A stretch of DNA of 7,479 bases from DRGV01 sp018903055 [NCBI: bacterium] (GTDB lineage: Bacteria; UBP18; UBA7526), in the NCBI GenBank assembly GCA_018903055.1, contig JAHIPW010000136.1, positions 1 through 7,479 of the forward strand. Direction: 5' to 3'. The position numbers were made by a program, and so were the translations under genes. Positions 1-7,479 of the stretch are shown here, in pieces (within the stretch, counting starts at the first letter, position 1; each line of letters opens with the position of its first letter). A model generated the notes under the pieces. It did no database searches and was not told the DNA's origin. It saw only the letters and a list, made by a program, of their open reading frames with translations.

Positions 1-380
1 GCCTTAGGATAAAGATCGGCCCTCTTTATCTTCAAATAGTCCATCCATTTAAAATACTCTTTGGTATATCTCTCTGCTACCTCTCTCACCAGAGCCTTTA
101 CATCTGATTTCTGATATCTGATATCTGATTTCTTAAGTTCTCTTGCTTTGGCAATTATCTTATCATCCACATCCGTGATATTCTGAACATACTTTACCTT
201 ATAGCCTTTATACTTTAAATAGCGATAGATGACGTCAAAGGCCACATAGCATCTTGCATGGCCCAGATGGCAGTCATCATAGACCGTCACCCCACAGACA
301 TACATTCCCACTCTGCCCTTCTTTAGGGGTAAGAACCTTTCTTTCTTTCCGGTGAGGGTATTATAAACCTTAAGAGTCAT
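1..380 (-). CDS. cysS: Cysteinyl-tRNA synthetase, N-terminal part (partial, 3' end outside window)
   Basis: This class I aminoacyl-tRNA synthetase charges tRNA-Cys with cysteine in the cytosol. 126 codons are visible before the window edge, and no stop is reached. The N-terminus has the expected start followed by [11 protein letters not shown]. The zinc-binding [15 protein letters not shown] segment at about residues 29-43 carries the HIGH-type nucleotide-binding motif as HLGH, and [16 protein letters not shown] follows at about residues 64-79, as in the family. The ATG at 380-378 has an AAGGAAG Shine-Dalgarno sequence at 393-387, six bases upstream, and lies 22 bp after the membrane-protein gene. 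Oddly, residues of about 84-93 ([10 protein letters not shown]) are encoded by four tandem AAATCAG/ATATCAG heptamers, apparently lengthening a loop after the first catalytic half-domain. Identity is clear; only the effect of the repeat is uncertain. Confidence 0.95.
104..131. repeat. Four-unit heptamer tandem array inside cysS
   Basis: On the plus strand four contiguous 7-bp units read CTGATTT, CTGATAT, CTGATAT, CTGATTT; on the coding strand they read AAATCAG or ATATCAG. The array lies within the cysS reading frame. Neither unit contains TAA, TAG or TGA in any cyclic frame, so the frame stays open through it. Related ATCAG-containing units reappear in the gap at 2398-2490. Confidence 0.9.
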
Positions 381-861: not shown

Positions 862-2364
862 CTAATCTATTCTCTTACGTCTCGAAGCCAAGGCCTCCAG
901 TCTATGCCCACAGTCTGGCTGGCCGCCAGCCGCCAGCCGCCAGCCGCCAGCCGCCAGAGGCGAGCCTCGCCCAAAAGGGCGGGAGGCGAGCTTCGCCCCG
1001 ATGGGCGAGGGACAGAAGCCTCTTCTCTGATGATGCCGGCAGGTAAAATCCTCCAAATCATCAACGCCGGTCTGAATCATCCCGCAATAGACCCGGGCCC
1101 AGAAGTCAGCCCGCGTGACAGAATCGTATTTCTCCCAATCGATCATCCATCCATAATCCTTCTGGTAGTAGGAGTGGATGAGTCCGGCAATATGCTTCGG
1201 ATGCCATCCCAGGCAAAGGAAAGCGCGGCAAAAGTGAAGGATATTGGTAGGAACAAGGAGAGCCGGACAGGGTGACCGGAGGATATGGCGAAGACAAGGA
1301 GGTAAGGATTCCCAATCGATTCTTTTATCATAATCTTTTAAGTATCTCTTTCTGTCAAACTCCTGATGAAATTTATAAAGTTTAGAGTCTTTATAATCCT
1401 CTAAGACTCTTCCCCAGCCCCGGGAGGCATCGGGGATAACAGTACTTACCTCCTTAGCATATTCTATTGCCTTCTTATAATCGCGTCGGATTTCAAAGAC
1501 CTTCCGGTAGGATAGTCTATTTCTGGGAACTACCATATAGACCGGGGTCGCTTCAGAGACCTCCTTGCCTGCCCGATGGGGATTAATCTTATGCTTCTGG
1601 TGGGCAGAAAAAGAGAGGCGAATGGTGCGCATGAAAAGTGGATCCCCATACTGGGTAAGGTCCAGTGAGATGCCCTCCCGTGGATGATGATTAGTGCCGG
1701 GAGCGGTATCAGAGATAGTAACGGGCAAAGGACTTGACTTCTTTGTCTCTGCCATGAAACGGTGGCAGAGGAATTCCATGAGGCGCCCTATAGCGCTATA
1801 GGCCTTCCCGGGTTTTAAAGGAATCGGCCCTTGACGCTTAATGTCACTGGGAACCAGGGTGCGGTATTTCTCCTTGAGTGTGGGATTTAGATGACCGACC
1901 TTCTCTAACTCCTTATGCACTGGAGAGGTAAAGGGAATACAGGAAACAAAGTGATATCCAGAGGTCGTGGTATTATTAATGTGGGGGATATGGTATTCCT
2001 CAAGAACCCTTTCGATGGTAGAATAGATGGGCTCCATCTTTTCAAAACTACCTAGTTGATCGGTATAGAGCCCAGCTAAAGAATCGAGGTTAAAGTATTC
2101 TATATCCAGAATAGCCAGGGTAGCTTTCTTATCCCAGACCGCCCGAAAGAGGTCCAATCCCTTCTCTAAAAGGCGCACCATATCTCTATTATCCACGACC
2201 ATTATGGGAAAGGAGTATCCTTCCCGCTGCAAGGCCTCTCCCGAACCTACTAAGTACTCGCAAGCGAAGGAGGAAGAGTCATTAAATCTTCCTCCACAAT
2301 ATTGGGCTAATCTCTCCCTGATATGGGAATGACGATAGTATTCAACCCGGTTCTTCATACTCAT
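862..2364 (-). CDS. Archaeo-eukaryotic primase (PriS-like) fused to PriL-like Fe-S domain, copy A, with repeat insertion
   Basis: This 500-residue protein is a paralog of the upstream gene at 2636-4045. I infer an AEP-type primase or primase-polymerase. The catalytic part shows motif I at D87-I-E89 (AILDIEYFN), motif II at S135-G-Y-H138-F and motif III at D235 followed by R246, R249 and FSAHQKHK (252-259). The C-terminal part resembles the primase large-subunit Fe-S domain: PPC at C357, a hydrophobic LGWHPKHIAGLI helix, then C442-x8-C451 and C485. Between C451 and C485 lie 33 residues, against four between the matching cysteines of the paralog; residues 453-481 come from a GC-rich repeat block, so the fourth ligand survives but is displaced. 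The first ATG (2364) has AGGA eleven bases upstream. The ATG at 2358 aligns better with the paralog's start and is an alternative. No helicase domain is present. The substrate and cellular role are unknown. Confidence 0.75.
   Translation of the reverse strand: MSMKNRVEYYRHSHIRERLAQYCGGRFNDSSSFACEYLVGSGEALQREGYSFPIMVVDNRDMVRLLEKGLDLFRAVWDKKATLAILDIEYFNLDSLAGLYTDQLGSFEKMEPIYSTIERVLEEYHIPHINNTTTSGYHFVSCIPFTSPVHKELEKVGHLNPTLKEKYRTLVPSDIKRQGPIPLKPGKAYSAIGRLMEFLCHRFMAETKKSSPLPVTISDTAPGTNHHPREGISLDLTQYGDPLFMRTIRLSFSAHQKHKINPHRAGKEVSEATPVYMVVPRNRLSYRKVFEIRRDYKKAIEYAKEVSTVIPDASRGWGRVLEDYKDSKLYKFHQEFDRKRYLKDYDKRIDWESLPPCLRHILRSPCPALLVPTNILHFCRAFLCLGWHPKHIAGLIHSYYQKDYGWMIDWEKYDSVTRADFWARVYCGMIQTGVDDLEDFTCRHHQRRGFCPSPIGAKLASRPFGRGSPLAAGGWRLAAGGQPDCGHRLEALASRRKRID
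922..956. repeat. Heptamer tandem array GCCGCCA x5
   Basis: Five perfect, contiguous copies of GCCGCCA (plus strand; TGGCGGC on the coding strand). No cyclic frame of this unit contains a stop codon. It forms the 3' coding side of the 87-bp block and encodes the GGWRLAAGG-type stretch. Confidence 0.95.
957..1008. repeat. Palindromic repeat unit with three potential hairpins
   Basis: Two related near-palindromes, GGCGAGCCTCGCCC at 959-972 and GGCGAGCTTCGCCCC at 985-999, form an imperfect direct repeat. Between and after them are GCCC-AAAA-GGGC (969-980) and TCGCCC-CGAT-GGGCGA (993-1008), each a perfect small hairpin. There is no trailing T-run and the block lies inside a reading frame, so it is not read as a terminator. 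Confidence 0.8.
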
Positions 2365-2397
2365 TTGATTTTAAATCCTAAGCAAGTTAAAAAGCAT

Positions 2398-2490
2398 ATC
2401 AGGATACCAGAACATCAGAAAATTTTTCTTTAAAGTTTGATACCCTGATATTTTGATATCCTTCCTACTGATATCCTGATCTTCTGATTT
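2398..2490. repeat. Interrupted ATCAG octamer repeats in inverted arrangement
   Basis: Left side: ATCAGGATACCAG at 2398-2410, followed by further CAGAACATCAGAAA units. Right side: CTGATATCCTGAT at 2468-2480, which is the reverse complement of the left 13-mer with one mismatch, followed by CTTCTGATTT to 2490. Additional CTGATATT and TTGATATC units lie at about 2444-2460. On the minus strand the right side reads AAATCAG, AAGATCAG, GATATCAG, the same vocabulary as the heptamers inside cysS. Confidence 0.75.
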
Positions 2491-2520
2491 ACTATTTCTT
2501 GGTCATTTGGATTTTGCCTG

Positions 2521-2536
2521 CCTGTCGGCAGACAGG
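2521..2536. repeat. Perfect hairpin CCTGTC-GGCA-GACAGG
   Basis: A six-base stem with a four-base loop, preceded by TGCCTG, which extends alternative pairings. Translated across on the minus strand it gives the peptide CLPTGRQ, a string I recall from many short hypothetical proteins of environmental genomes. That supports a dispersed palindromic repeat rather than a site unique to this locus. No T-run follows on either strand. Confidence 0.75.
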
Positions 2537-2553
2537 AACATTCGTGTTTGTTT

Positions 2554-2583
2554 ACCCCGTTGATAATTTCATATCTACGGGGT
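2554..2583. repeat. 30-bp palindrome with ACCCCGT/ACGGGGT arms
   Basis: The outer seven bases ACCCCGT (2554-2560) and ACGGGGT (2577-2583) are perfectly complementary. After one mismatched pair, GATA and TATC add four more pairs around a six-base loop. The flanks are AT-rich, and on the transcribed strand the hairpin is followed by AAACAAACAC rather than a T-run, so it is better read as an inserted palindromic element than as an intrinsic terminator. Confidence 0.8.
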
Positions 2584-2635
2584 TTAGTATTTAGTTTTTC
2601 GGATTTAGAGTTTAAAGAGGTTTCGGCAAAATCCC

Positions 2636-4045
2636 TCATTTCTTGTAGAAGTTATAGTCTGCAAGATTGAAACCGCAGGAAGGTTGCCAGCAGTAGCCCT
2701 TCTCCTGGTGGGAGAGACAGTTTAAATCCTTCTCCCCATCCAACCCAGTAGCCAAGAGACCAGCAAAGAGGCGCACATAGAAATTAGCACGAGAGGTAGC
2801 ATCGTATCTCATCCAGATATTGCCCCAGCCGTAATCCCTCTCAAACTTAGAGCGGATGAGCCCGGCAATATGTTTGGGATGCCAGCCCAACTTCATAAGC
2901 ACCCGAGTTAAGAGTTGGATATTGGTAGGTTTTAAGAGATGGTCATTGGGAAACTTCAGGCAGTGATTAACACAAGGAGGTAATAAATTATAATTAAAAG
3001 CATCGTAGGTTCGATTCCAAACTTCAGGAGGATCGTGCTCCTCTTGGGCAAAGGCCAGATGGAAATGATAGAGGGGAGCGGCCTGATAGGCCTCAATCAG
3101 CTTCTCAAAGCCCGAGGAGCATTCGGGAATTTTGGTTTCCACTTGAGCGGCATAATCTGCCGCTTTTTGAAAATTAAAGCGCATCTGGAAGAGATCATCA
3201 AGGCCTAAATCCCCTCTGGGAAGGGCAACCTGAATCGGGAAATGGCGGGCTAAATCCTCACCTGCCTTATGCCTCTCTACTTTATGTTTTTGATAACTGG
3301 AAAAGGGGCAACGAATATCGCGCATATAGAGAGGATCACCATACATAGAGAGGTCAATAGATATCGCCTCCCGTCCCAACCTTCCCCGTCCGATGGCAAC
3401 ATCAGTAGTCACCACTGGTAGGGAACGGGAACCAGCTGCTTCCTGGAGTATGAGGTGAGTAAGATACTCCATAAGCCTCCCCATTCCCTCAAAGGCCTTA
3501 CCATGACGATAGGAGACATAGCGCGGCCTCCGAGGGCCAGAAGAAGCATACTTCCCTTTCAGGGAAGGAGGGATCTTCCCCAGTCCCTCCAGTTTCAATT
3601 CTGTCTTTGTTCTTCTACTCGCCCGGGTAGAGAAATGGTATCCCTGTCCGGTCATAATGACCAGGGGATTAATCCCAAACCTTGAGAAGACCTTTAGGAT
3701 AGCCTGATAGAGCGGCCCCAATTTCTCAAAGGTCTTCCGGGGATGGGCATATGGCTCACCAGGAAAATCGATGTTAAAATACTCTATATCGAGTATCCCT
3801 AAAGTACTCTCCCGATCCCAGTTGGAACGAAAGATGTCCAGGCCCTTCTCTAAGATCCAGAGGAAGCCCTTTTTGGGAAGAGAAACAAAACCCTCGGGAT
3901 AGGCCTTCTCCCACTGCAGGGACTCTCCATAGCCAACCAGATACTCCGCAGTAAAAGATTGAGGATCACCAGCAAAGCCCCCACAGTACTGGGCAATCCT
4001 TTCTCTTACCCTCGGATCGCGATAGAATTCGACTTGATTGCGCAT
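2636..4045 (-). CDS. Archaeo-eukaryotic primase (PriS-like) fused to PriL-like Fe-S domain, copy B
   Basis: This 469-residue protein is the intact reference copy of the pair; both begin with an M-x-N-x-VE(Y/F)YR pattern and align along their whole length. Motif I is D86-I-E88 in GILDIEYFN. Motif II is GQGYH137F, lacking the Ser that precedes Gly in copy A. Motif III is D231 with R242, R245 and FSSYQKHK (248-255). These fit the metal-binding and nucleotide-binding positions of AEP primases. The C-terminal part has PPC (C358), LGWHPKHIAGLI, then C443-x8-C452-x4-C457, closely matching the cysteine layout of archaeal PriL Fe-S domains. The ATG at 4045 has AAGG about eight bases upstream and follows the DUF2934 gene by 20 bp. 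Likely activity is primer or short-chain synthesis; biological role (replication, repair, element-borne or defence) cannot be decided here. Confidence 0.78.
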   Translation of the reverse strand: MRNQVEFYRDPRVRERIAQYCGGFAGDPQSFTAEYLVGYGESLQWEKAYPEGFVSLPKKGFLWILEKGLDIFRSNWDRESTLGILDIEYFNIDFPGEPYAHPRKTFEKLGPLYQAILKVFSRFGINPLVIMTGQGYHFSTRASRRTKTELKLEGLGKIPPSLKGKYASSGPRRPRYVSYRHGKAFEGMGRLMEYLTHLILQEAAGSRSLPVVTTDVAIGRGRLGREAISIDLSMYGDPLYMRDIRCPFSSYQKHKVERHKAGEDLARHFPIQVALPRGDLGLDDLFQMRFNFQKAADYAAQVETKIPECSSGFEKLIEAYQAAPLYHFHLAFAQEEHDPPEVWNRTYDAFNYNLLPPCVNHCLKFPNDHLLKPTNIQLLTRVLMKLGWHPKHIAGLIRSKFERDYGWGNIWMRYDATSRANFYVRLFAGLLATGLDGEKDLNCLSHQEKGYCWQPSCGFNLADYNFYKK

Positions 4046-4065: not shown

Positions 4066-4278
4066 TTACTTCTCTTTCTTCACGGCGTATTGAGAGTCAA
4101 CAATCTTTTCTGCCTTAAGCCAATCCTCAAAGTCGTGGCCGTGCCTCCGGCCCCGGGCAACGAAGAACTCATGAGCTAACTTAACTATCTTCTCCCACTT
4201 CTCCCGAGGAGAAATCTCTGGCTTGGTCTCCTCCTTCTTTTCCTTCTTCTTCCTTCCTCCCATCTTTCTTCTTACCAT
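4066..4278 (-). CDS. Small DUF2934-like basic protein
   Basis: This 70-residue protein has no assigned function. The first 20 residues are Lys/Arg-rich (RRK, GGRKKKEKKEE), resembling a nucleic-acid-binding or disordered tail. Residues of about 27-60 read EKWEKIVKLAHEFFVARG, then HGHDFEDWLKAE, matching the DUF2934 pattern: an AY-like helix, then RG, a G-H/S-D-x-x-DW turn and xAE. I chose the ATG at 4278-4276 because a strong AGGAGG (4293-4288) lies nine bases upstream; a GTG at 4284-4282 would be only about three bases from it. The gene starts 77 bp after glgA, past a heptamer array and a hairpin, and ends 20 bp before the first primase-like gene, suggesting that it is co-expressed with the primases. 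Confidence 0.72.
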   Translation of the reverse strand: MVRRKMGGRKKKEKKEETKPEISPREKWEKIVKLAHEFFVARGRRHGHDFEDWLKAEKIVDSQYAVKKEK

Positions 4279-4284
4279 CTTCAC

Positions 4285-4314: not shown

Positions 4315-4322
4315 CAAGTTAC

Positions 4323-4378
4323 ATTGAACAATGAACATTGAACATTGACTATTGACTATTGACTATTGACTATTGACT
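4323..4378. repeat. Eight-unit heptamer array that provides the glgA stop codon
   Basis: On the plus strand, ATTGAAC (4323), AATGAAC (4330) and ATTGAAC (4337) are followed by five perfect ATTGACT units (4344-4378). The coding strand reads AGTCAAT repeats. Because 7 is not a multiple of 3, every reading frame meets TAG within three units; glgA enters at 4378 and stops at 4358-4356, giving the tail residues SIVNSQ. Confidence 0.93.
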
Positions 4379-5840
4379 TGGAGTGCACCTCTTCAACCTT
4401 AAGATACTTCTGGTATAGGGTAAGATAATGCCGGGCTGAGTTTGTCCAAGAAAAATCCTCCCTCATACCAGTCTTTACTAAATTCCTCCAGAGCCTCTTT
4501 TGGCTATAGAAATAGAGGGCCCGTTCTACTGCTTTTAAGAGGGCTTGCGAAGAATATTCTCTAAAGACTATCCCGTTTCCCTTTCCGGTGGCGGGATCGA
4601 AGTCACTAACTGTGTCAATCAACCCTCCCGTTGCCCGGACAATGGGAACCGTCCCGTAGCGAAGGCTTATTAATTGACCCAGACCACAGGGTTCGTAGCG
4701 GGAGGGCATGAGGAAGGCGTCGCTACCCGCATATATTCTCTTAGAGAGTGGGGCATCGAACTTCAGATTAATCCCTATCTTTCCCGGGTACTTTTTAGAC
4801 AATTCCTGAAAGAGGCGATGATATCTTTCGTCACCTGTCCCCAGAATCACCAGCTGAATCTTCTCTTCCATCAATCCTTTTAGAGCCTTAAGCGTGATGT
4901 CTAACCCTTTCTGATCTGCTAAGCGGGTAATCATACCTATAAGGAATATCTCCGGGTCTTCTTCCAGGCCCTGCTCCTGCTGGAGGGCGCTTTTATTTAT
5001 TCTTTTTTTCCAGATACTTTTCACGCTATATCTTGCCTTTAGTTCTCTATCGGTCTTGGGGTTCCAGTAATGGTAGTCCAGGCCATTTATTATTCCATAG
5101 AGATCTTTTTGGCGTTTCTTTAAAACACCATCCAGGCCACAACCGAACTCCGGGGTCTGAATCTCCTGAGCATAGTGGGGGCTAACCGTAGTCAGGGCAT
5201 GGCTATAGATAATCCCCCCTTTGAGAAAATTTACTTTCCCCCAGAATTCAAGCCCCTCTATATTATACTCTGACCAATCCAGGCCGGTTAAGGGGAAGTG
5301 CTCTTTGGGGAAGAGGCCCTGATAGGCCAGATTGTGGATGGTAAGGATACTCCTGGTGCGGGAATAAAAGGGATCATTTCGATATAAGGTCTTGAGATAG
5401 ACCGGGACCAGAGCGGTCTGCCAATCATGACAATGGATGATATCTGGCTTCAAGCCTATTCTCTTGAAGAATTCCAGACTCACCCTTTGAAAGAATATGA
5501 AGCGTAGATCGTTATCTGGATAGTCGCCTTCCTTAGTAGTATAGAGCTCCGACCGGGCAAAGAACCTTTCGCATTCTACGAAATAAACCAGATGTTCGGG
5601 GAAGGGCTCATGGGAAAAGATGTTAGCCTTTATCGTCTCGCCACCGAGTGAGACCGCCAGATCCTTAATGATCAATTTCATCTTGAAACGCTGGCGGTCG
5701 ATGGCTTTATAGAGAGGCATAATACTTCTTACTTGAAGACCCAGTTGAACTAATGTCCAGGGCAAAGAGCCACAGACATCGGCCAGCCCGCCGGTCTTGG
5801 CATAGGGTAGCATCTCTGGAGTAATAAAGAGAATATTCAT
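4356..5840 (-). CDS. glgA: Glycogen synthase, ADP-glucose type (GT5)
   Basis: This enzyme transfers glucose from ADP-glucose to the non-reducing end of an alpha-1,4-glucan in the cytosol. The 494-residue length is normal. The N-terminal GT5 catalytic domain opens with the ADP-glucose-binding KTGGLADV motif (K15-V22). IHCHDWQTALVPVYLK surrounds H138, and TIHNLAYQG follows at about 167-175. The C-terminal Rossmann half carries ITRLADQKGL (R306, K311), LGTGD (333-337) and PSRYEPCGLGQL (E383) followed by TGGLIDTV. The ATG at 5840 is preceded by AAGGTG and lies 32 bp after glgC, its substrate supplier. The family's usual end is near the YLTLYQKYL helix at about 472-480; the final residues SIVNSQ come from a heptamer repeat that also supplies the stop codon, so the native C-terminus has probably been replaced or extended slightly. 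Function should be unaffected. Confidence 0.96.
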   Translation of the reverse strand: MNILFITPEMLPYAKTGGLADVCGSLPWTLVQLGLQVRSIMPLYKAIDRQRFKMKLIIKDLAVSLGGETIKANIFSHEPFPEHLVYFVECERFFARSELYTTKEGDYPDNDLRFIFFQRVSLEFFKRIGLKPDIIHCHDWQTALVPVYLKTLYRNDPFYSRTRSILTIHNLAYQGLFPKEHFPLTGLDWSEYNIEGLEFWGKVNFLKGGIIYSHALTTVSPHYAQEIQTPEFGCGLDGVLKKRQKDLYGIINGLDYHYWNPKTDRELKARYSVKSIWKKRINKSALQQEQGLEEDPEIFLIGMITRLADQKGLDITLKALKGLMEEKIQLVILGTGDERYHRLFQELSKKYPGKIGINLKFDAPLSKRIYAGSDAFLMPSRYEPCGLGQLISLRYGTVPIVRATGGLIDTVSDFDPATGKGNGIVFREYSSQALLKAVERALYFYSQKRLWRNLVKTGMREDFSWTNSARHYLTLYQKYLKVEEVHSKSIVNSQ

Positions 5841-5872: not shown

Positions 5873-7090
5873 CTATTTAAAGGCCTCCTGAAGGACGACA
5901 ACAATCCCTTTTTCCGTAACCGGAAATCTCTTCCGGTCCTCTTCCAGATTGTATCCTATGGCCAGCTCCTCAGGGATGGAGGTGAACTTGTCGATTATTG
6001 CTCGTCTTATCTTTGCCTTCCGACCAATCTTCACCCCCTCCATCAGAATGGATTCCCATACCTGGGCATACTCCTCTACCCTTACTCCGGGCGAAAGGAT
6101 ACTCCTTTCCACCAGGCCACCGCTTATGATGCAGCCCTGGGAGACGAGAGAGTCCAGGGCCAGACCCTTTCTTTCCCCATCCGCAAAAACCGTCTTGGCG
6201 GGGGGGAACTGCTCCAGATAAGTACGGATGGGCCAATCCTGATCATAGAGATTAAAAATAGGGCTGACCGAGACCAGATCCATATTCGCTTCCCAGTAAG
6301 CATCGATACTTCCTATGTCCCGCCAGTAAAGAGGCTCTTTATTCTTTCCCGTAAAAGGATAGGCAAATACCCTGTCCTTTCCTATCATGGCCGGAATAAT
6401 ATCCTTGCCAAAATCATGGCTACTCTTTGCTTCCTTAGCATCCTCCAGGAGGATTTCTTTTAGTTTTTTCTTTCTGAAGACATAGATCCCCATGGAGGCT
6501 AAAGAGAAGGAGGGAGAATCCTTTATGGTCTTAGGCCTTTCTGGCTTCTCCTGGAAAGAGACCACCAGCCCGTTCTCAGCCAACTCCATAATGCCCAACT
6601 CTTTAGCGCTCTCTACCGGAACCGGTATCGCCCCGATGGTTAGATCCGCCTTCTTTTCCCGATGATACCTGAGCATCGGGCGATAATCCATCTTGTAGAC
6701 ATGGTCTCCCGCCAGAATGAGGACCTCCTGCGCCCCCTCTATCTCTATGGTAAAGAGATTCTGATAAAGGGCATCGGCCGTACCAAGATACCAATCTTCA
6801 CCGACTCTCTGCTGGGCGGGTAGTATCTCTATAAACTCCCCTACCTCCCGCTTAAATAGATTCCATCCCGATTGAATATGGCGATCAAGGGAAAGGGCTT
6901 TATACTGGGTTAAGACATAGATCCTTCTTAGTCCAGAATTGAGGCAGTTGGAGAGAGTAAAGTCTATTACCCGGTAACTTCCCCCGAAGGGAACAGCGGG
7001 CTTGGTACGATACTTAGTCAGGGGATAGAGCCTCTCACCCTTGCCTCCCGCCATAATAAAAGTCAGGGTATTTTTGTTTACATCAAGCAT
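5873..7090 (-). CDS. glgC: Glucose-1-phosphate adenylyltransferase (ADP-glucose pyrophosphorylase)
   Basis: The enzyme makes ADP-glucose from ATP and glucose-1-phosphate, usually the regulated step of glycogen synthesis. The 405-residue protein has the nucleotidyltransferase signature AGGKGERLYPLT (14-25), KPAVPFGGSYRVIDF (30-44), the GTADALYQN loop (103-111), the metal-binding D129 in LAGDHVYKMDY, the sugar-phosphate Lys182 in FQEKP, and D258 in YWRDIGSIDAYWEANMDL. The C-terminal 100 residues show the left-handed beta-helix pattern of repeated I/V/G turns (for example RSILSPGVRVEEYAQVWESIL). I chose the ATG at 7090 over an upstream in-frame start at 7147 because it has GGAGGGAG a few bases upstream and begins exactly at the family N-terminus. 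It overlaps the branching-enzyme gene by 8 nt, suggesting translational coupling. Allosteric effectors cannot be told from sequence. Confidence 0.97.
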   Translation of the reverse strand: MLDVNKNTLTFIMAGGKGERLYPLTKYRTKPAVPFGGSYRVIDFTLSNCLNSGLRRIYVLTQYKALSLDRHIQSGWNLFKREVGEFIEILPAQQRVGEDWYLGTADALYQNLFTIEIEGAQEVLILAGDHVYKMDYRPMLRYHREKKADLTIGAIPVPVESAKELGIMELAENGLVVSFQEKPERPKTIKDSPSFSLASMGIYVFRKKKLKEILLEDAKEAKSSHDFGKDIIPAMIGKDRVFAYPFTGKNKEPLYWRDIGSIDAYWEANMDLVSVSPIFNLYDQDWPIRTYLEQFPPAKTVFADGERKGLALDSLVSQGCIISGGLVERSILSPGVRVEEYAQVWESILMEGVKIGRKAKIRRAIIDKFTSIPEELAIGYNLEEDRKRFPVTEKGIVVVLQEAFK

Positions 7091-7479
7091 TATTCTCCCT
7101 CCACCAATCAGGATCAATCTCCTCAAAGATATTGTCTCTTTTCTCACATTCTATCAAAAAAGAGAGTTCAGATTTGCTCACTGGTCTACCTTTTAACAAT
7201 CCCTTTATCATCTTATATATTCTCTGAAAGTCCTCATAGTGTCTGCTGGCCCTAATCTCGGCATAGTCCCGGGCGCTCAAGGTAGAGATTAAGAAGGGCC
7301 AATCCGAGCTTTCTAAGAGAAGAAGTTCCCGGGCCATTTGTTTCAGGAGGCGTTCTTTGAGATGGTGAGAAAAAGACCTCGACTTATAAACAATTTCCTT
7401 CATCTCCTTCTCCGCCTGATAGATATACTTCCAGACCCACTTCGTCAATTGATTGAACCAGATCCAGTGGAATCCCCCC
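7083..7479 (-). CDS. GH57 1,4-alpha-glucan branching enzyme, C-terminal part (partial, 5' end outside window)
   Basis: The last 131 residues of a protein whose reading frame stays open to the window edge. The sequence FHWIWFNQLTKWVWKYIYQAEKEM, then ARELLLLESSDWPFLIST, ARDYAEIRASRHYEDFQRIYKMI and finally EKRDNIFEEIDPDWW matches the C-terminal DUF1957 domain of GH57 branching enzymes, in which the helical SSDWPFLI segment and the closing DNIFPEID-like motif are characteristic. The enzyme cuts alpha-1,4 links and rejoins them as alpha-1,6 branches. The catalytic barrel lies upstream of this window, so catalytic residues cannot be checked, and a related GH57 amylase or glucanotransferase is a weaker alternative. 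The TTG at 7448 is internal, not a start. The gene ends in TGA at 7085-7083, inside the first codons of glgC, placing all glycogen-building enzymes in one unit. Confidence 0.86.
   Translation of the reverse strand, partial: GGFHWIWFNQLTKWVWKYIYQAEKEMKEIVYKSRSFSHHLKERLLKQMARELLLLESSDWPFLISTLSARDYAEIRASRHYEDFQRIYKMIKGLLKGRPVSKSELSFLIECEKRDNIFEEIDPDWWRENNA
7095..7102 (-). promoter_or_regulatory. Shine-Dalgarno GGAGGGAG that fixes the glgC start
   Basis: This near-consensus site lies inside the end of the branching-enzyme coding sequence, four bases upstream of the ATG at 7090 (seven from the GGAGG core). It decides against the longer reading frame beginning at 7147. Confidence 0.85.

What the first reader, a model, noticed from the sequence alone, without database searches (positions are those of the whole stretch)
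862..4045. Tandem divergent pair of single-chain PriS+PriL-like primases in a bacterial locus
Seen: two adjacent genes encode full-length paralogs sharing LDIEYFN, GYHF, D-L-x-x-YGDPL-x-MR-x-IR-x-x-FS-x-x-QKHK, and a C-terminal PPC...LGWHPKHIAGLI...C-x8-C region with a fourth Cys. Known: archaeo-eukaryotic primases use acidic motif I, a His motif II and an Asp motif III, and archaeal PriL ends in a four-cysteine Fe-S domain beginning with PPC and closing with C-x8-C-x(n)-C. Inference: both proteins fuse a catalytic PriS-like domain to a PriL-type Fe-S domain in one chain. Two copies in tandem, without a helicase, phage or plasmid genes nearby, are unusual in bacteria and may form a heterodimer or a two-component priming or repair system.
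Basis: partly seen in the sequence, partly recalled or inferred. Interest (0 to 1): 0.82.

Follow-up and report, generated by a model that had tools for sequence, protein, structure and literature searches.

The report
Unrecognised archaeal-style DNA primases in bacteria
Two neighbouring genes in an uncultured bacterium encode related proteins that look like an archaeal or human DNA primase squeezed into one chain; relatives sit in the chromosomes of other bacteria, often beside a gene resembling a DNA-repair nuclease, which hints at a bacterial DNA repair system worth testing.

Summary
Genes B (2636-4045) and A (862-2364) are 42% identical full-length paralogs with the quoted motifs. The N-terminal half carries the catalytic residues of archaeo-eukaryotic primases (AEPs), invariant in 25 of 25 aligned relatives; a low-confidence model (pLDDT 50.9) ranks AEP chains first, but sequence profiles alone do not reach PriS. 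The C-terminal half resembles the Fe-S domain of archaeal PriL: hhalign score 28.9 against a maximum of 18.7 in 300 shuffles, and cysteine spacing close to solved S. solfataricus PriL; Pfam's PriL model stays below cut-off. The family occurs in 19 of 386 sampled bacterial genomes; with B as query no phage and no credible plasmid relative appeared. In 8 of 14 genomes outside the window's lineage and Elusimicrobia, the next gene is an endonuclease IV-like TIM barrel. dnaG matched in 22 of 22 genomes tested, Ku in 1 of 22. Best reading: an accessory primase-polymerase with a PriL-type Fe-S domain, probably filling or repriming gaps in DNA repair. A-type and B-type copies are old paralogs, both also present, unlinked, in 6 Elusimicrobia-group genomes. 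Heterodimer formation is untested.

The parts
2636..4045 (-). Gene B: 469-aa single-chain AEP plus PriL-type Fe-S protein
   Evidence: ORF; relatives; alignments
862..2364 (-). Gene A: 500-aa paralog (42% identical to B), A type
   Evidence: ORF; A-type grouping
3116..3838 (-). B catalytic core, residues about 70-310 (boundaries approximate)
   Evidence: top structural rows span model residues about 76-305; model of low confidence
3782..3790 (-). B motif I, D86-x-E88
   Evidence: invariant in 25 of 25 and 18 of 18 rows
3635..3652 (-). B motif II, T132-GQGY-H137
   Evidence: G135 and H137 invariant in 25 of 25 and 18 of 18 rows
3287..3355 (-). B motif III, D231 to K253 (R242, R245, S249 between)
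   Evidence: invariant in 25 of 25 rows; in register with a recalled PriS consensus, not significant alone
2636..3040 (-). B C-terminal domain, residues 336-469, PriL-type Fe-S domain
   Evidence: hhalign; PF04104 below cut-off; solved PriL spacing
2972..2974 (-). B Cys1 (C358, LPPC)
   Evidence: 25 of 25 rows
2690..2719 (-). B Cys2-x8-Cys3 (C443, C452)
   Evidence: both Cys in 25 of 25 rows; same x8 spacing in S. solfataricus PriL 5of3_B
2675..2677 (-). B Cys4 (C457)
   Evidence: nearly invariant in the 25 rows
922..1008 (-). In-frame 87-nt insertion in gene A between Cys3 and Cys4, with GCCGCCA heptads and inverted repeats
   Evidence: absent from the L001 copy; repeats
4066..4284 (-). DUF2934 small gene 20 bp upstream of B; same order in L001
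   Evidence: PF11154 E 4.2e-9; L001 7775-7990; dN/dS 0.148 over 68 codons

Best explanation
A and B belong to a bacterial chromosomal family of single-chain primase-polymerases that I could not match to a described family: an AEP catalytic domain (DxE, H, D metal and nucleotide site) followed by a PriL-type four-cysteine Fe-S domain. They are unlikely to be the replicative primase, since DnaG is present. Most likely the AEP domain binds a gapped or primed single-strand region and adds nucleotides, filling or repriming gaps left by damage processing, while the Fe-S domain helps position template and initiating nucleotide as in PriL. In many lineages the gene lies in a likely operon with an endonuclease IV-like phosphodiesterase that would make or clean the gap; the parallel is the mycobacterial LigC/Prim-PolC pathway, which works best in vitro with EndoIV. 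In the window's lineage there are two paralogs and no such neighbour; A and B may work together. Shown: motifs, cysteine pattern, distribution, gene linkage, selection on the UBP18 pair, presence of DnaG. Inferred: the fold of the catalytic half (low-confidence model), cluster binding, activity, repair role, A-B cooperation.
For: D86, E88, G135, H137, D231, R242, R245, S249 and K253 invariant in 25 of 25 aligned relatives. The first 19 structural rows are AEPs: 15 entries titled as LigD PolDom, CAPP, Prim-PolC or a primase catalytic subunit, and 4 chains of pol alpha-primase complexes that I take to be Pri1 from their residue numbering; best Z 8.6, 8.5, 8.2. C-terminal domain against a PriL consensus: score 28.9, E 1.8e-4, 0 of 300 shuffles as high, maximum 18.7. 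S. solfataricus PriL has C-x8-C-x3-C. Endonuclease IV-like gene next downstream, same strand, in 8 of 14 genomes, 6 of 10 family codes; PF01261 in 6 of 6 scanned; 8 of 9 E. coli Nfo zinc ligands identical in 6 of 6 aligned, and the ninth His motif present in 8 of 8 linked members. dnaG match in 22 of 22 genomes, 20 of them with the family; Ku in 1 of 22. dN/dS 0.159 and 0.118. LigC/Prim-PolC excision repair most efficient in vitro with EndoIV: PMC5663958, passages read. Control for weak Pfam results: PolpTN2, a characterised AEP-PriL fusion, also gets no PF01896, PF04104 or PriCT match at E 1.
Against: Mean pLDDT 50.9 and 56.8 for the two models. Foldseek's first row was an engineered protein, and no row reached E 0.001. 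No PF01896 match; a recalled PriS consensus is not significant (3 of 150 shuffles as high; motifs I-II alone 57 of 150). PF04104 is below its cut-off in 20 of 20 genomes, silent even at E 10 in 14 of them, and 3 of its 7 matches lie outside the family. hhalign's own probability for the PriL match is 18.5% with the full alignment and 48% with the domain. The domain model matched nothing convincing. The neighbour gene is closer to MJ1311 and sugar epimerases than to Nfo, misses the nfo cut-off, is absent from the window's genome at E 1e-15, and the Elusimicrobia members have Asn at the first His site and did not fit the DxH pattern searched. In the mycobacterial study Prim-PolC itself bound LigC1, and EndoIV bound LigC; no ligase was looked for here. 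Glycogen genes lie beside the A/B pair or the EndoIV-like gene in three lineages.
Confidence: 0.52

Rival explanations
1. An AEP-PriL enzyme that acts as a second, specialised primase for replication restart or special replication conditions. The EndoIV-like neighbour is incidental.
For: PriL-type Fe-S domain, whose known role is in primer synthesis; A-type and B-type copies both kept in UBP18 and in 6 Elusimicrobia-group genomes; no EndoIV-like gene at E 1e-15 in the window's own genome; a RecG helicase gene lies near the copy in L072 and a partial DnaE-like gene in L060.
Against: dnaG matched in 22 of 22 genomes; EndoIV-like gene adjacent in 8 of 14 genomes. Replication genes near the family were not surveyed systematically.
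Confidence: 0.24
2. A metabolic pair: the TIM barrel is a sugar epimerase or CbiR-like phosphodiesterase, and the AEP-like protein has been recruited for nucleotidyl transfer outside DNA.
For: PDB profile search ranks MJ1311 first and D-tagatose epimerases next; CbiR is the best NCBIfam hit in 4 of 6 scanned neighbours, sugar epimerases in the other 2, all below cut-off; glgC and glgA upstream in the window, glgA upstream of the EndoIV-like gene in Elusimicrobia, alpha-glucan phosphorylase downstream in G023.
Against: Other neighbours differ: hisS and aspS in L062 (by eye also hisS in L063-L065), chromate transporter genes in L069 and L070. The AEP residues and Fe-S cysteines are kept. Eight of nine EndoIV zinc ligands align, more than simple epimerases need (recalled).
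Confidence: 0.13
3. Domesticated remnant of a plasmid or phage primase of the PolpTN2 or PrimPol-PV1 kind, without a dedicated cellular role.
For: Fused PriS-PriL architecture is known from the pTN2 plasmid and a Bacillus provirus (PMC3973330, passages).
Against: With B as query, no match in 50,697 phage records and 3 noise matches in 72,556 plasmid records; with A3, 46 viral-contig stretches matched a pattern and none was confirmed. Purifying selection in UBP18.
Confidence: 0.06
4. A and B only resemble AEPs and PriL by coincidence of motifs.
For: Low-confidence models; no Pfam match above cut-off in 18 of 18 members or the further relatives scanned.
Against: Two halves of one protein each resemble a primase part by different methods.
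Confidence: 0.05

Closest known systems
PolpTN2 of Thermococcus nautili plasmid pTN2 (fused PriS-like plus PriL-like primase)
   Same: AEP domain and PriL-like four-Cys domain in one chain; the one hhalign segment pairs VDID/TGGG of PolpTN2 with LDIE/TGQG of this family (E 0.086, not significant alone).
   Different: 922-aa frame running to the end of the record against about 470 aa; PriCT-1 and winged-helix domains reported for PolpTN2 (PMC5862659, passages) were not seen here, though the Pfam scan also misses PriCT-1 in PolpTN2 itself; archaeal plasmid against bacterial chromosome.
Archaeal/eukaryotic replicative primase PriS-PriL
   Same: AEP motifs I-III; Fe-S domain with PPC...C-x8-C; cysteines of Gerd_ePriL 252, 334, 343, 388 (PMC12770985, passage) against B 358, 443, 452, 457.
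   Different: One chain, not two; no PF01896 match; Cys4 much nearer Cys3 than in Gerd_ePriL; host has DnaG.
Bacterial Prim-Pols: LigD PolDom and mycobacterial Prim-PolC
   Same: Closest solved folds to the model; the LigC/Prim-PolC pathway works with EndoIV in excision repair (PMC5663958, passages).
   Different: Ku in 1 of 22 genomes; ligase neighbours were not searched; PolDom and Prim-PolC have no PriL-type domain (recalled).
Nanoarchaeum equitans and Bacillus provirus phBC6A51 fused primases
   Same: Named as the other reported PriS-PriL fusions (PMC3973330, passage).
   Different: Not compared: the accession I tried for phBC6A51 is not held, and the N. equitans protein was not fetched.
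MJ1311 / endonuclease IV / CbiR TIM barrels (for the neighbouring gene)
   Same: PF01261 in 6 of 6 scanned; best solved match MJ1311, E 3.7e-38; zinc-ligand pattern of Nfo.
   Different: Below the TIGR00587 nfo and CbiR cut-offs.

Membership tests
AEP (Prim-Pol) superfamily | Motif I D-x-D/E | tested here: met
   D86 and E88 invariant in 25 of 25 and 18 of 18 rows; pattern found by script in 34 of 35 proteins, not in L059:3135-4475
AEP (Prim-Pol) superfamily | Motif II histidine | tested here: met
   H137 invariant in 25 of 25 and 18 of 18 rows; the two divergent L059 proteins were not in these alignments
AEP (Prim-Pol) superfamily | Motif III aspartate with following basic residues | tested here: met
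   D231, R242, R245, S249, K253 invariant in 25 of 25 rows; script pattern found in 34 of 35 proteins, not in L059:1575-3134
AEP (Prim-Pol) superfamily | AEP catalytic fold | tested here: inconclusive
   Supportive: first 19 rows AEPs, top Z 8.6; but model pLDDT 50.9 and no Foldseek row at E 0.001 or better
AEP (Prim-Pol) superfamily | Primase or polymerase activity | not testable with these tools
   needs purified protein
PriS (PF01896) | Profile match to DNA_primase_S | tested here: not met
   none at E 1 in G000 or in 18 of 18 members; recalled PriS consensus equalled by 3 of 150 shuffles. PolpTN2 fails the same scan
PriL Fe-S domain (PF04104) | Four cysteines, C-x about 80-C-x8-C-x(n)-C | tested here: met
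   C358, C443, C452, C457 in B; C1-C3 in 25 of 25 rows; 24 of 35 proteins fit C-x8-C-x3-5-C strictly; of the other 11, window A, L066 and L069 have changed spacing, and 6 Elusimicrobia A-type and 2 L059 proteins lack it; PriL 5of3_B has C-x8-C-x3-C
PriL Fe-S domain (PF04104) | Profile match over the curated cut-off | tested here: not met
   best 16.5 bits against 22.4; 0 of 20 genomes over the cut-off. PolpTN2 gets no match at all
PriL Fe-S domain (PF04104) | Sequence similarity along the domain | tested here: met
   hhalign score 28.9, E 1.8e-4, 0 of 300 shuffles as high; probability only 48%.
PriL Fe-S domain (PF04104) | Same fold | tested here: inconclusive
   domain model pLDDT 56.8, no convincing match
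PriL Fe-S domain (PF04104) | Bound 4Fe-4S cluster | not testable with these tools
   needs spectroscopy
PrimPol-PV1 / PolpTN2-like | Encoded by mobile elements | tested here: not met
   B found no phage record and only noise in plasmids; no viral contig confirmed with A3; contexts of all relatives were not searched for mobile genes
PrimPol-PV1 / PolpTN2-like | PriCT-1 or PriCT-2 domain | tested here: inconclusive
   no PriCT match in 18 of 18 members at E 1, but the same scan misses the reported PriCT-1 of PolpTN2
LigD/Ku end joining | Ku partner | tested here: not met
   Ku in 1 of 22 genomes, G260
Endonuclease IV (neighbour gene) | Nine zinc ligands | tested here: inconclusive
   8 of 9 identical in 6 of 6 rows; H69 sits 3 columns off; His motif present in 8 of 8 linked members; Asn there in 4 of 4 Elusimicrobia members the script found
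Endonuclease IV (neighbour gene) | TIGR00587 nfo cut-off | tested here: not met
   best 34.2 bits against 129.65

The most novel reading that the evidence does not exclude
Bacteria possess a chromosomal, archaeal-style two-protein primase. An ancestral single-chain PriS-PriL enzyme duplicated long ago and the two copies specialised: B keeps catalysis plus the Fe-S domain, and A is drifting to a catalytic-only partner (in Elusimicrobia its Fe-S cysteines are gone). This re-enacts, or preserves the state before, the PriS/PriL division of labour. With an endonuclease IV-like nuclease it forms a self-contained excision and resynthesis repair system.
Probability: 0.2. Interest if true: 0.88.

Novelty: new variant of a known kind. 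Interest (0 to 1): 0.72.

Why it matters
Textbook bacteria prime with DnaG, and one large survey describes its bacterial AEPs as nearly exclusively mobile-element genes (PMC5862659, abstract and passages). A chromosomal AEP with a PriL-type Fe-S domain in unrelated bacterial lineages would add a cellular branch to the primase tree, bear on how PriS and PriL arose, and give a compact bacterial model for the debated role of the PriL Fe-S cluster. The linked endonuclease IV-like gene makes a repair function directly testable. A and B had no match above a cut-off in Pfam or NCBIfam and none at E 0.1 in PHROGs or PADLOC, so such proteins are probably annotated as hypothetical (inference).

Tried and rejected
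Ideas rejected. Replacement of DnaG: dnaG matched in 22 of 22 genomes, 21 over the cut-off; in G002 only in pieces below it. Ku-linked end joining: Ku in 1 of 22, G260, which is also one of the eight genomes with the linked EndoIV-like gene. Mobile-element primase: no support; the Sinorhizobium plasmid matches (E 0.4) showed no AEP-like frame, and frames there look flagellar by eye. Pfam RPE65, Terminase_5, HTH_IclR and similar weak hits: below cut-off and scattered. PDB profile searches with the family: nothing relevant. BFVD structure search: no row at E 0.001; one phage protein named as a TOTE conflict primase at rank 14, E 0.11. Fe-S domain model: no PriL in the rows returned, which is no evidence against. 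Catalytic half against a recalled PriS consensus: best local match in register at motif III but not significant. The first pTN2 frame I took for PolpTN2 was the wrong gene; the right frame is L078:10248-13013.

Mended on checking. It also called the PriCT test failed, but the control PolpTN2 fails it too. The odds of the repair reading went from 0.55 to 0.52 and of the restart rival from 0.22 to 0.24 for the first of these; the coincidence rival went from 0.04 to 0.05 for the hhalign probabilities now told.

Limits. G096, G236 and G364 show the same contigs and nearly the same coordinates as G066, G068 and G065, and G002 the same as G060: I take them to be the same genomes. G042 (E 7e-4, 49 residues) is treated as noise. 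One search scored at most four candidates a genome, so divergent extra copies may be missed. Rows L062, L063, L065 and L067 were used a few residues short at the C-terminus, after the last Cys. The six Elusimicrobia A-type rows and two L059 rows are not in the 25-row alignment. In one search the PF04104 stretches of L001 B and L062, read without gaps, put Cys1 on profile position 111 like the consensus; the window B stretch, read the same way, gives about 120, so the register is not uniform.

Full report
Observation. The window holds, on the minus strand, the end of a glucan branching enzyme gene (7083-7478), glgC (5873-7147), glgA (4356-5840), a DUF2934 gene (4066-4284), B (2636-4045), A (862-2364), a TIGR04086 membrane protein gene (403-858) and the start of cysS (3-380). 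A close relative, UBP18 bacterium UBA7526 (L001), has the same order DUF2934-B-A, with B and A overlapping by 4 bp. Between the two, dN/dS is 0.148, 0.118 and 0.159 for DUF2934, B and A. The window's A carries an 87-nt in-frame insertion (922-1008) between its third and fourth cysteines that L001 lacks.

Catalytic half. In 25 relatives, all B-like except the two UBP18 A proteins, D86, E88, G135, H137, D231, R242, R245, S249 and K253 are invariant. In another set of 18 that includes five Elusimicrobia A-type rows, D86, E88, T132, G135, H137, D231, R242, R245, S249, Q252 and K253 are invariant. This is the motif I (DxE), II (H) and III (D, then basic residues) pattern of archaeo-eukaryotic primases (pattern recalled). 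A template-free AlphaFold2 model of B is poor (pLDDT 50.9, nine sequences). Foldseek gave an engineered protein first and LigD PolDom second (E 0.033), none at E 0.001. VIA-align 2, over 996 chains that Foldseek had ranked, put AEPs in rows 1-19: LigD PolDom Z 8.6, 8.5 and 8.2 (rmsd 3.5-3.7 over 145-147 residues), human Pri1 7.1, CAPP 7.0, Prim-PolC 6.8, yeast primase 6.5; four of these rows are chains of pol alpha-primase complexes that I take to be Pri1 by residue numbering; P. abyssi PriS is row 26, Z 6.0. Sequence profiles do not reach PriS: no PF01896 match, and a recalled PriS consensus (E 1.5e-32 to PF01896) aligned in register at motif III, but 3 of 150 shuffles scored as high. As a control, PolpTN2, a characterised fused AEP-PriL enzyme, also gets no PF01896 or PF04104 match at E 1. 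I call the family an AEP on motifs and fold ranking, and not a PriS.

C-terminal half. Pfam's PriL model matches B only weakly (E 0.058). Over 20 genomes searched to E 10, 6 had a match, none over the cut-off; of the 7 matches, 4 fall in this family, including the best three (best 16.5 bits). Against the family's C-terminal alignment it scores 28.9 (E 1.8e-4, probability 48%); 300 shuffles average 11.2, s.d. 2.1, maximum 18.7; LPPC, the second and the third cysteines fall in register. With the full alignment E is 0.0013 and probability 18.5%. Letters of solved structures agree: S. solfataricus PriL (5of3_B) has C-x8-C-x3-C followed by NPLQLY, B has C443-x8-C452-x4-C457 followed by FNLADY; P. 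abyssi PriL has C-x10-C-x5-C and then NPLTYY. An Asgard PriL has cysteines at 252, 334, 343 and 388 (PMC12770985, passage). A separate model of this domain (pLDDT 56.8) matched nothing convincing.

Distribution. A relatives search found the family in 19 of 386 bacterial genomes, the window's own included, and 16 of 326 genera. In the phylum-level group of G061 (Elusimicrobia) 8 of 16 genomes have it. tblastn with B found nothing in 50,697 phage records and three noise matches in 72,556 plasmid records; a viral-contig scan with A3 matched 46 stretches by pattern and confirmed none. dnaG matched in 22 of 22 genomes tested, 20 of them bearing the family, 21 over the cut-off.

Two old paralogs. 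Six of the eight Elusimicrobia-group genomes with the family hold a second copy on another contig; G062 and G064 have one match each, G064's partial. The second copies share TxSGxH and DITQY with the window's A and lack the C-terminal cysteines. In a 35-row tree the A-type rows, with one G232 row, group at 85/99. Without three long-branch rows (two L059, L069) the eight A-type rows are one side of a branch at 100/99; the root is not inferred. So the A/B split is probably older than the separation of the UBP18 and Elusimicrobia copies, or was spread by transfer. Of the 14 other genomes, 11 show one match.

Neighbouring nuclease-like gene. Of those 14 genomes, 8 (G023, G139, G156, G260, G275, G282, G360, G401; 6 of 10 family codes) have, next downstream on the same strand and at -4 to 66 bp, a gene for a TIM barrel of about 280 residues. 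Six of six scanned are PF01261 (E 1e-29 to 2e-42). In seven aligned, nine candidate metal ligands are invariant. Aligned with E. coli endonuclease IV, H109, E145, D179, H182, H216, D229, H231 and E261 are identical in 6 of 6 rows; H69 falls three columns off, and the corresponding His motif is present in 8 of 8 linked members. That these nine bind zinc in Nfo is recalled. The closest solved structure is MJ1311 (3wqo, E 3.7e-38), then ketose epimerases (about 1e-17), with endonuclease IV entries at 4e-7 and weaker; nfo and CbiR cut-offs are not met. The library held no paper naming MJ1311. At E 1e-15, 18 of 23 genomes had a match of any kind; G000, G002, G003, G034 and G077 had none. Elusimicrobia members (E 1e-63 to 1e-76) follow glgA in the three loci where the upstream gene could be read (L091, L092, L093), in G096 and G364 about 5 kb from the A-type copy; those checked have Asn at the first His site and did not fit the DxH pattern.

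Mechanism. The best-supported reading is an accessory AEP that fills or reprimes gaps, with a PriL-type Fe-S domain for template and nucleotide positioning, working in many lineages with an EndoIV-like phosphodiesterase. The parallel is the mycobacterial LigC/Prim-PolC pathway, most efficient in vitro with EndoIV, although there Prim-PolC itself bound LigC1 (PMC5663958, passages). Shown: motifs, cysteines, linkage, selection in UBP18, DnaG. Inferred: cluster, activity, substrate, partner contact. Other neighbours vary: hisS-aspS in L062, RecG near L072, part of a DnaE-like gene in L060, chromate transporters. Glycogen genes beside the window pair, the Elusimicrobia EndoIV-like gene and the G023 pair keep a metabolic rival alive.

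Known or new. Fused PriS-PriL enzymes are in print for pTN2, N. equitans and provirus phBC6A51 (PMC3973330, passages); the PrimPol-PV1 survey calls its bacterial AEPs nearly exclusively mobile-element genes (PMC5862659, outline and passages). Searches of the open library for AEP with PriL and fusion (20 of 43 listed), AEP with Elusimicrobia or candidate phyla (15 of 476 listed), AEP with endonuclease IV (2 of 2), and PriL/PriS with bacterial phyla (12 of 14) listed no title or abstract start that describes this family (listings read, passages of five papers opened). Subscription journals are mostly not held. I file it as a new variant of a known kind.

Noticed in passing
L108:154-3084 (G000:C142, the window's own genome): dnaG is one 976-aa frame with an in-frame insert between FHCFG and CGIGGN of the zinc-ribbon motif; by its ends an intein, and the middle gives weak hits to intein-containing proteins (NF045703 E 1.7e-9, below cut-off). 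G002 has dnaG in pieces that would fit the same insert.
   Followed up: partly
window 102-133, 922-957, 4321-4378: Tandem repeats with a 7-bp unit, each with a different unit (ATCTGAT, GCCGCCA, ACATTGA/ATTGACT), inside or at the ends of coding regions (cysS, gene A, glgA).
   Followed up: partly
window 922-1008: In-frame 87-nt insert in gene A, heptad repeats plus inverted repeats, moves the Cys3-Cys4 spacing from 4 to 33 residues; whether A's cluster survives is unknown.
   Followed up: partly
L059:1575-4475 (G232): Two adjacent, very divergent relatives without the C-terminal cysteines (one with SGKGYHF), next to a small histone-fold protein at 4786-5076 (PF00808 just over its cut-off, E 2.4e-4), in a bacterial genome that also has a full B-like copy.
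   Followed up: partly
L058:8434-8922 (G232): HhH-GPD base-excision repair glycosylase-like gene two genes downstream of the B-like copy (PF00730 E 5.5e-11).
   Followed up: no
L069:4498-5697 and L070:8058-9359: Chromate efflux transporter genes beside family members in two genomes of different family codes.
   Followed up: no
L077:4796-10752 (Elusimicrobia A-type locus): The A-type copy follows a PhoH2-like gene and a PHP gene resembling nucleoside bisphosphate phosphatase, and precedes a Clp ATPase gene; similar order by eye in other Elusimicrobia loci.
   Followed up: no
G034:C12:62272-63315 and 71572-72621; G292:C213, C259: Extra DnaG-like matches in other frames beside the normal dnaG, possibly mobile-element genes.
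   Followed up: no
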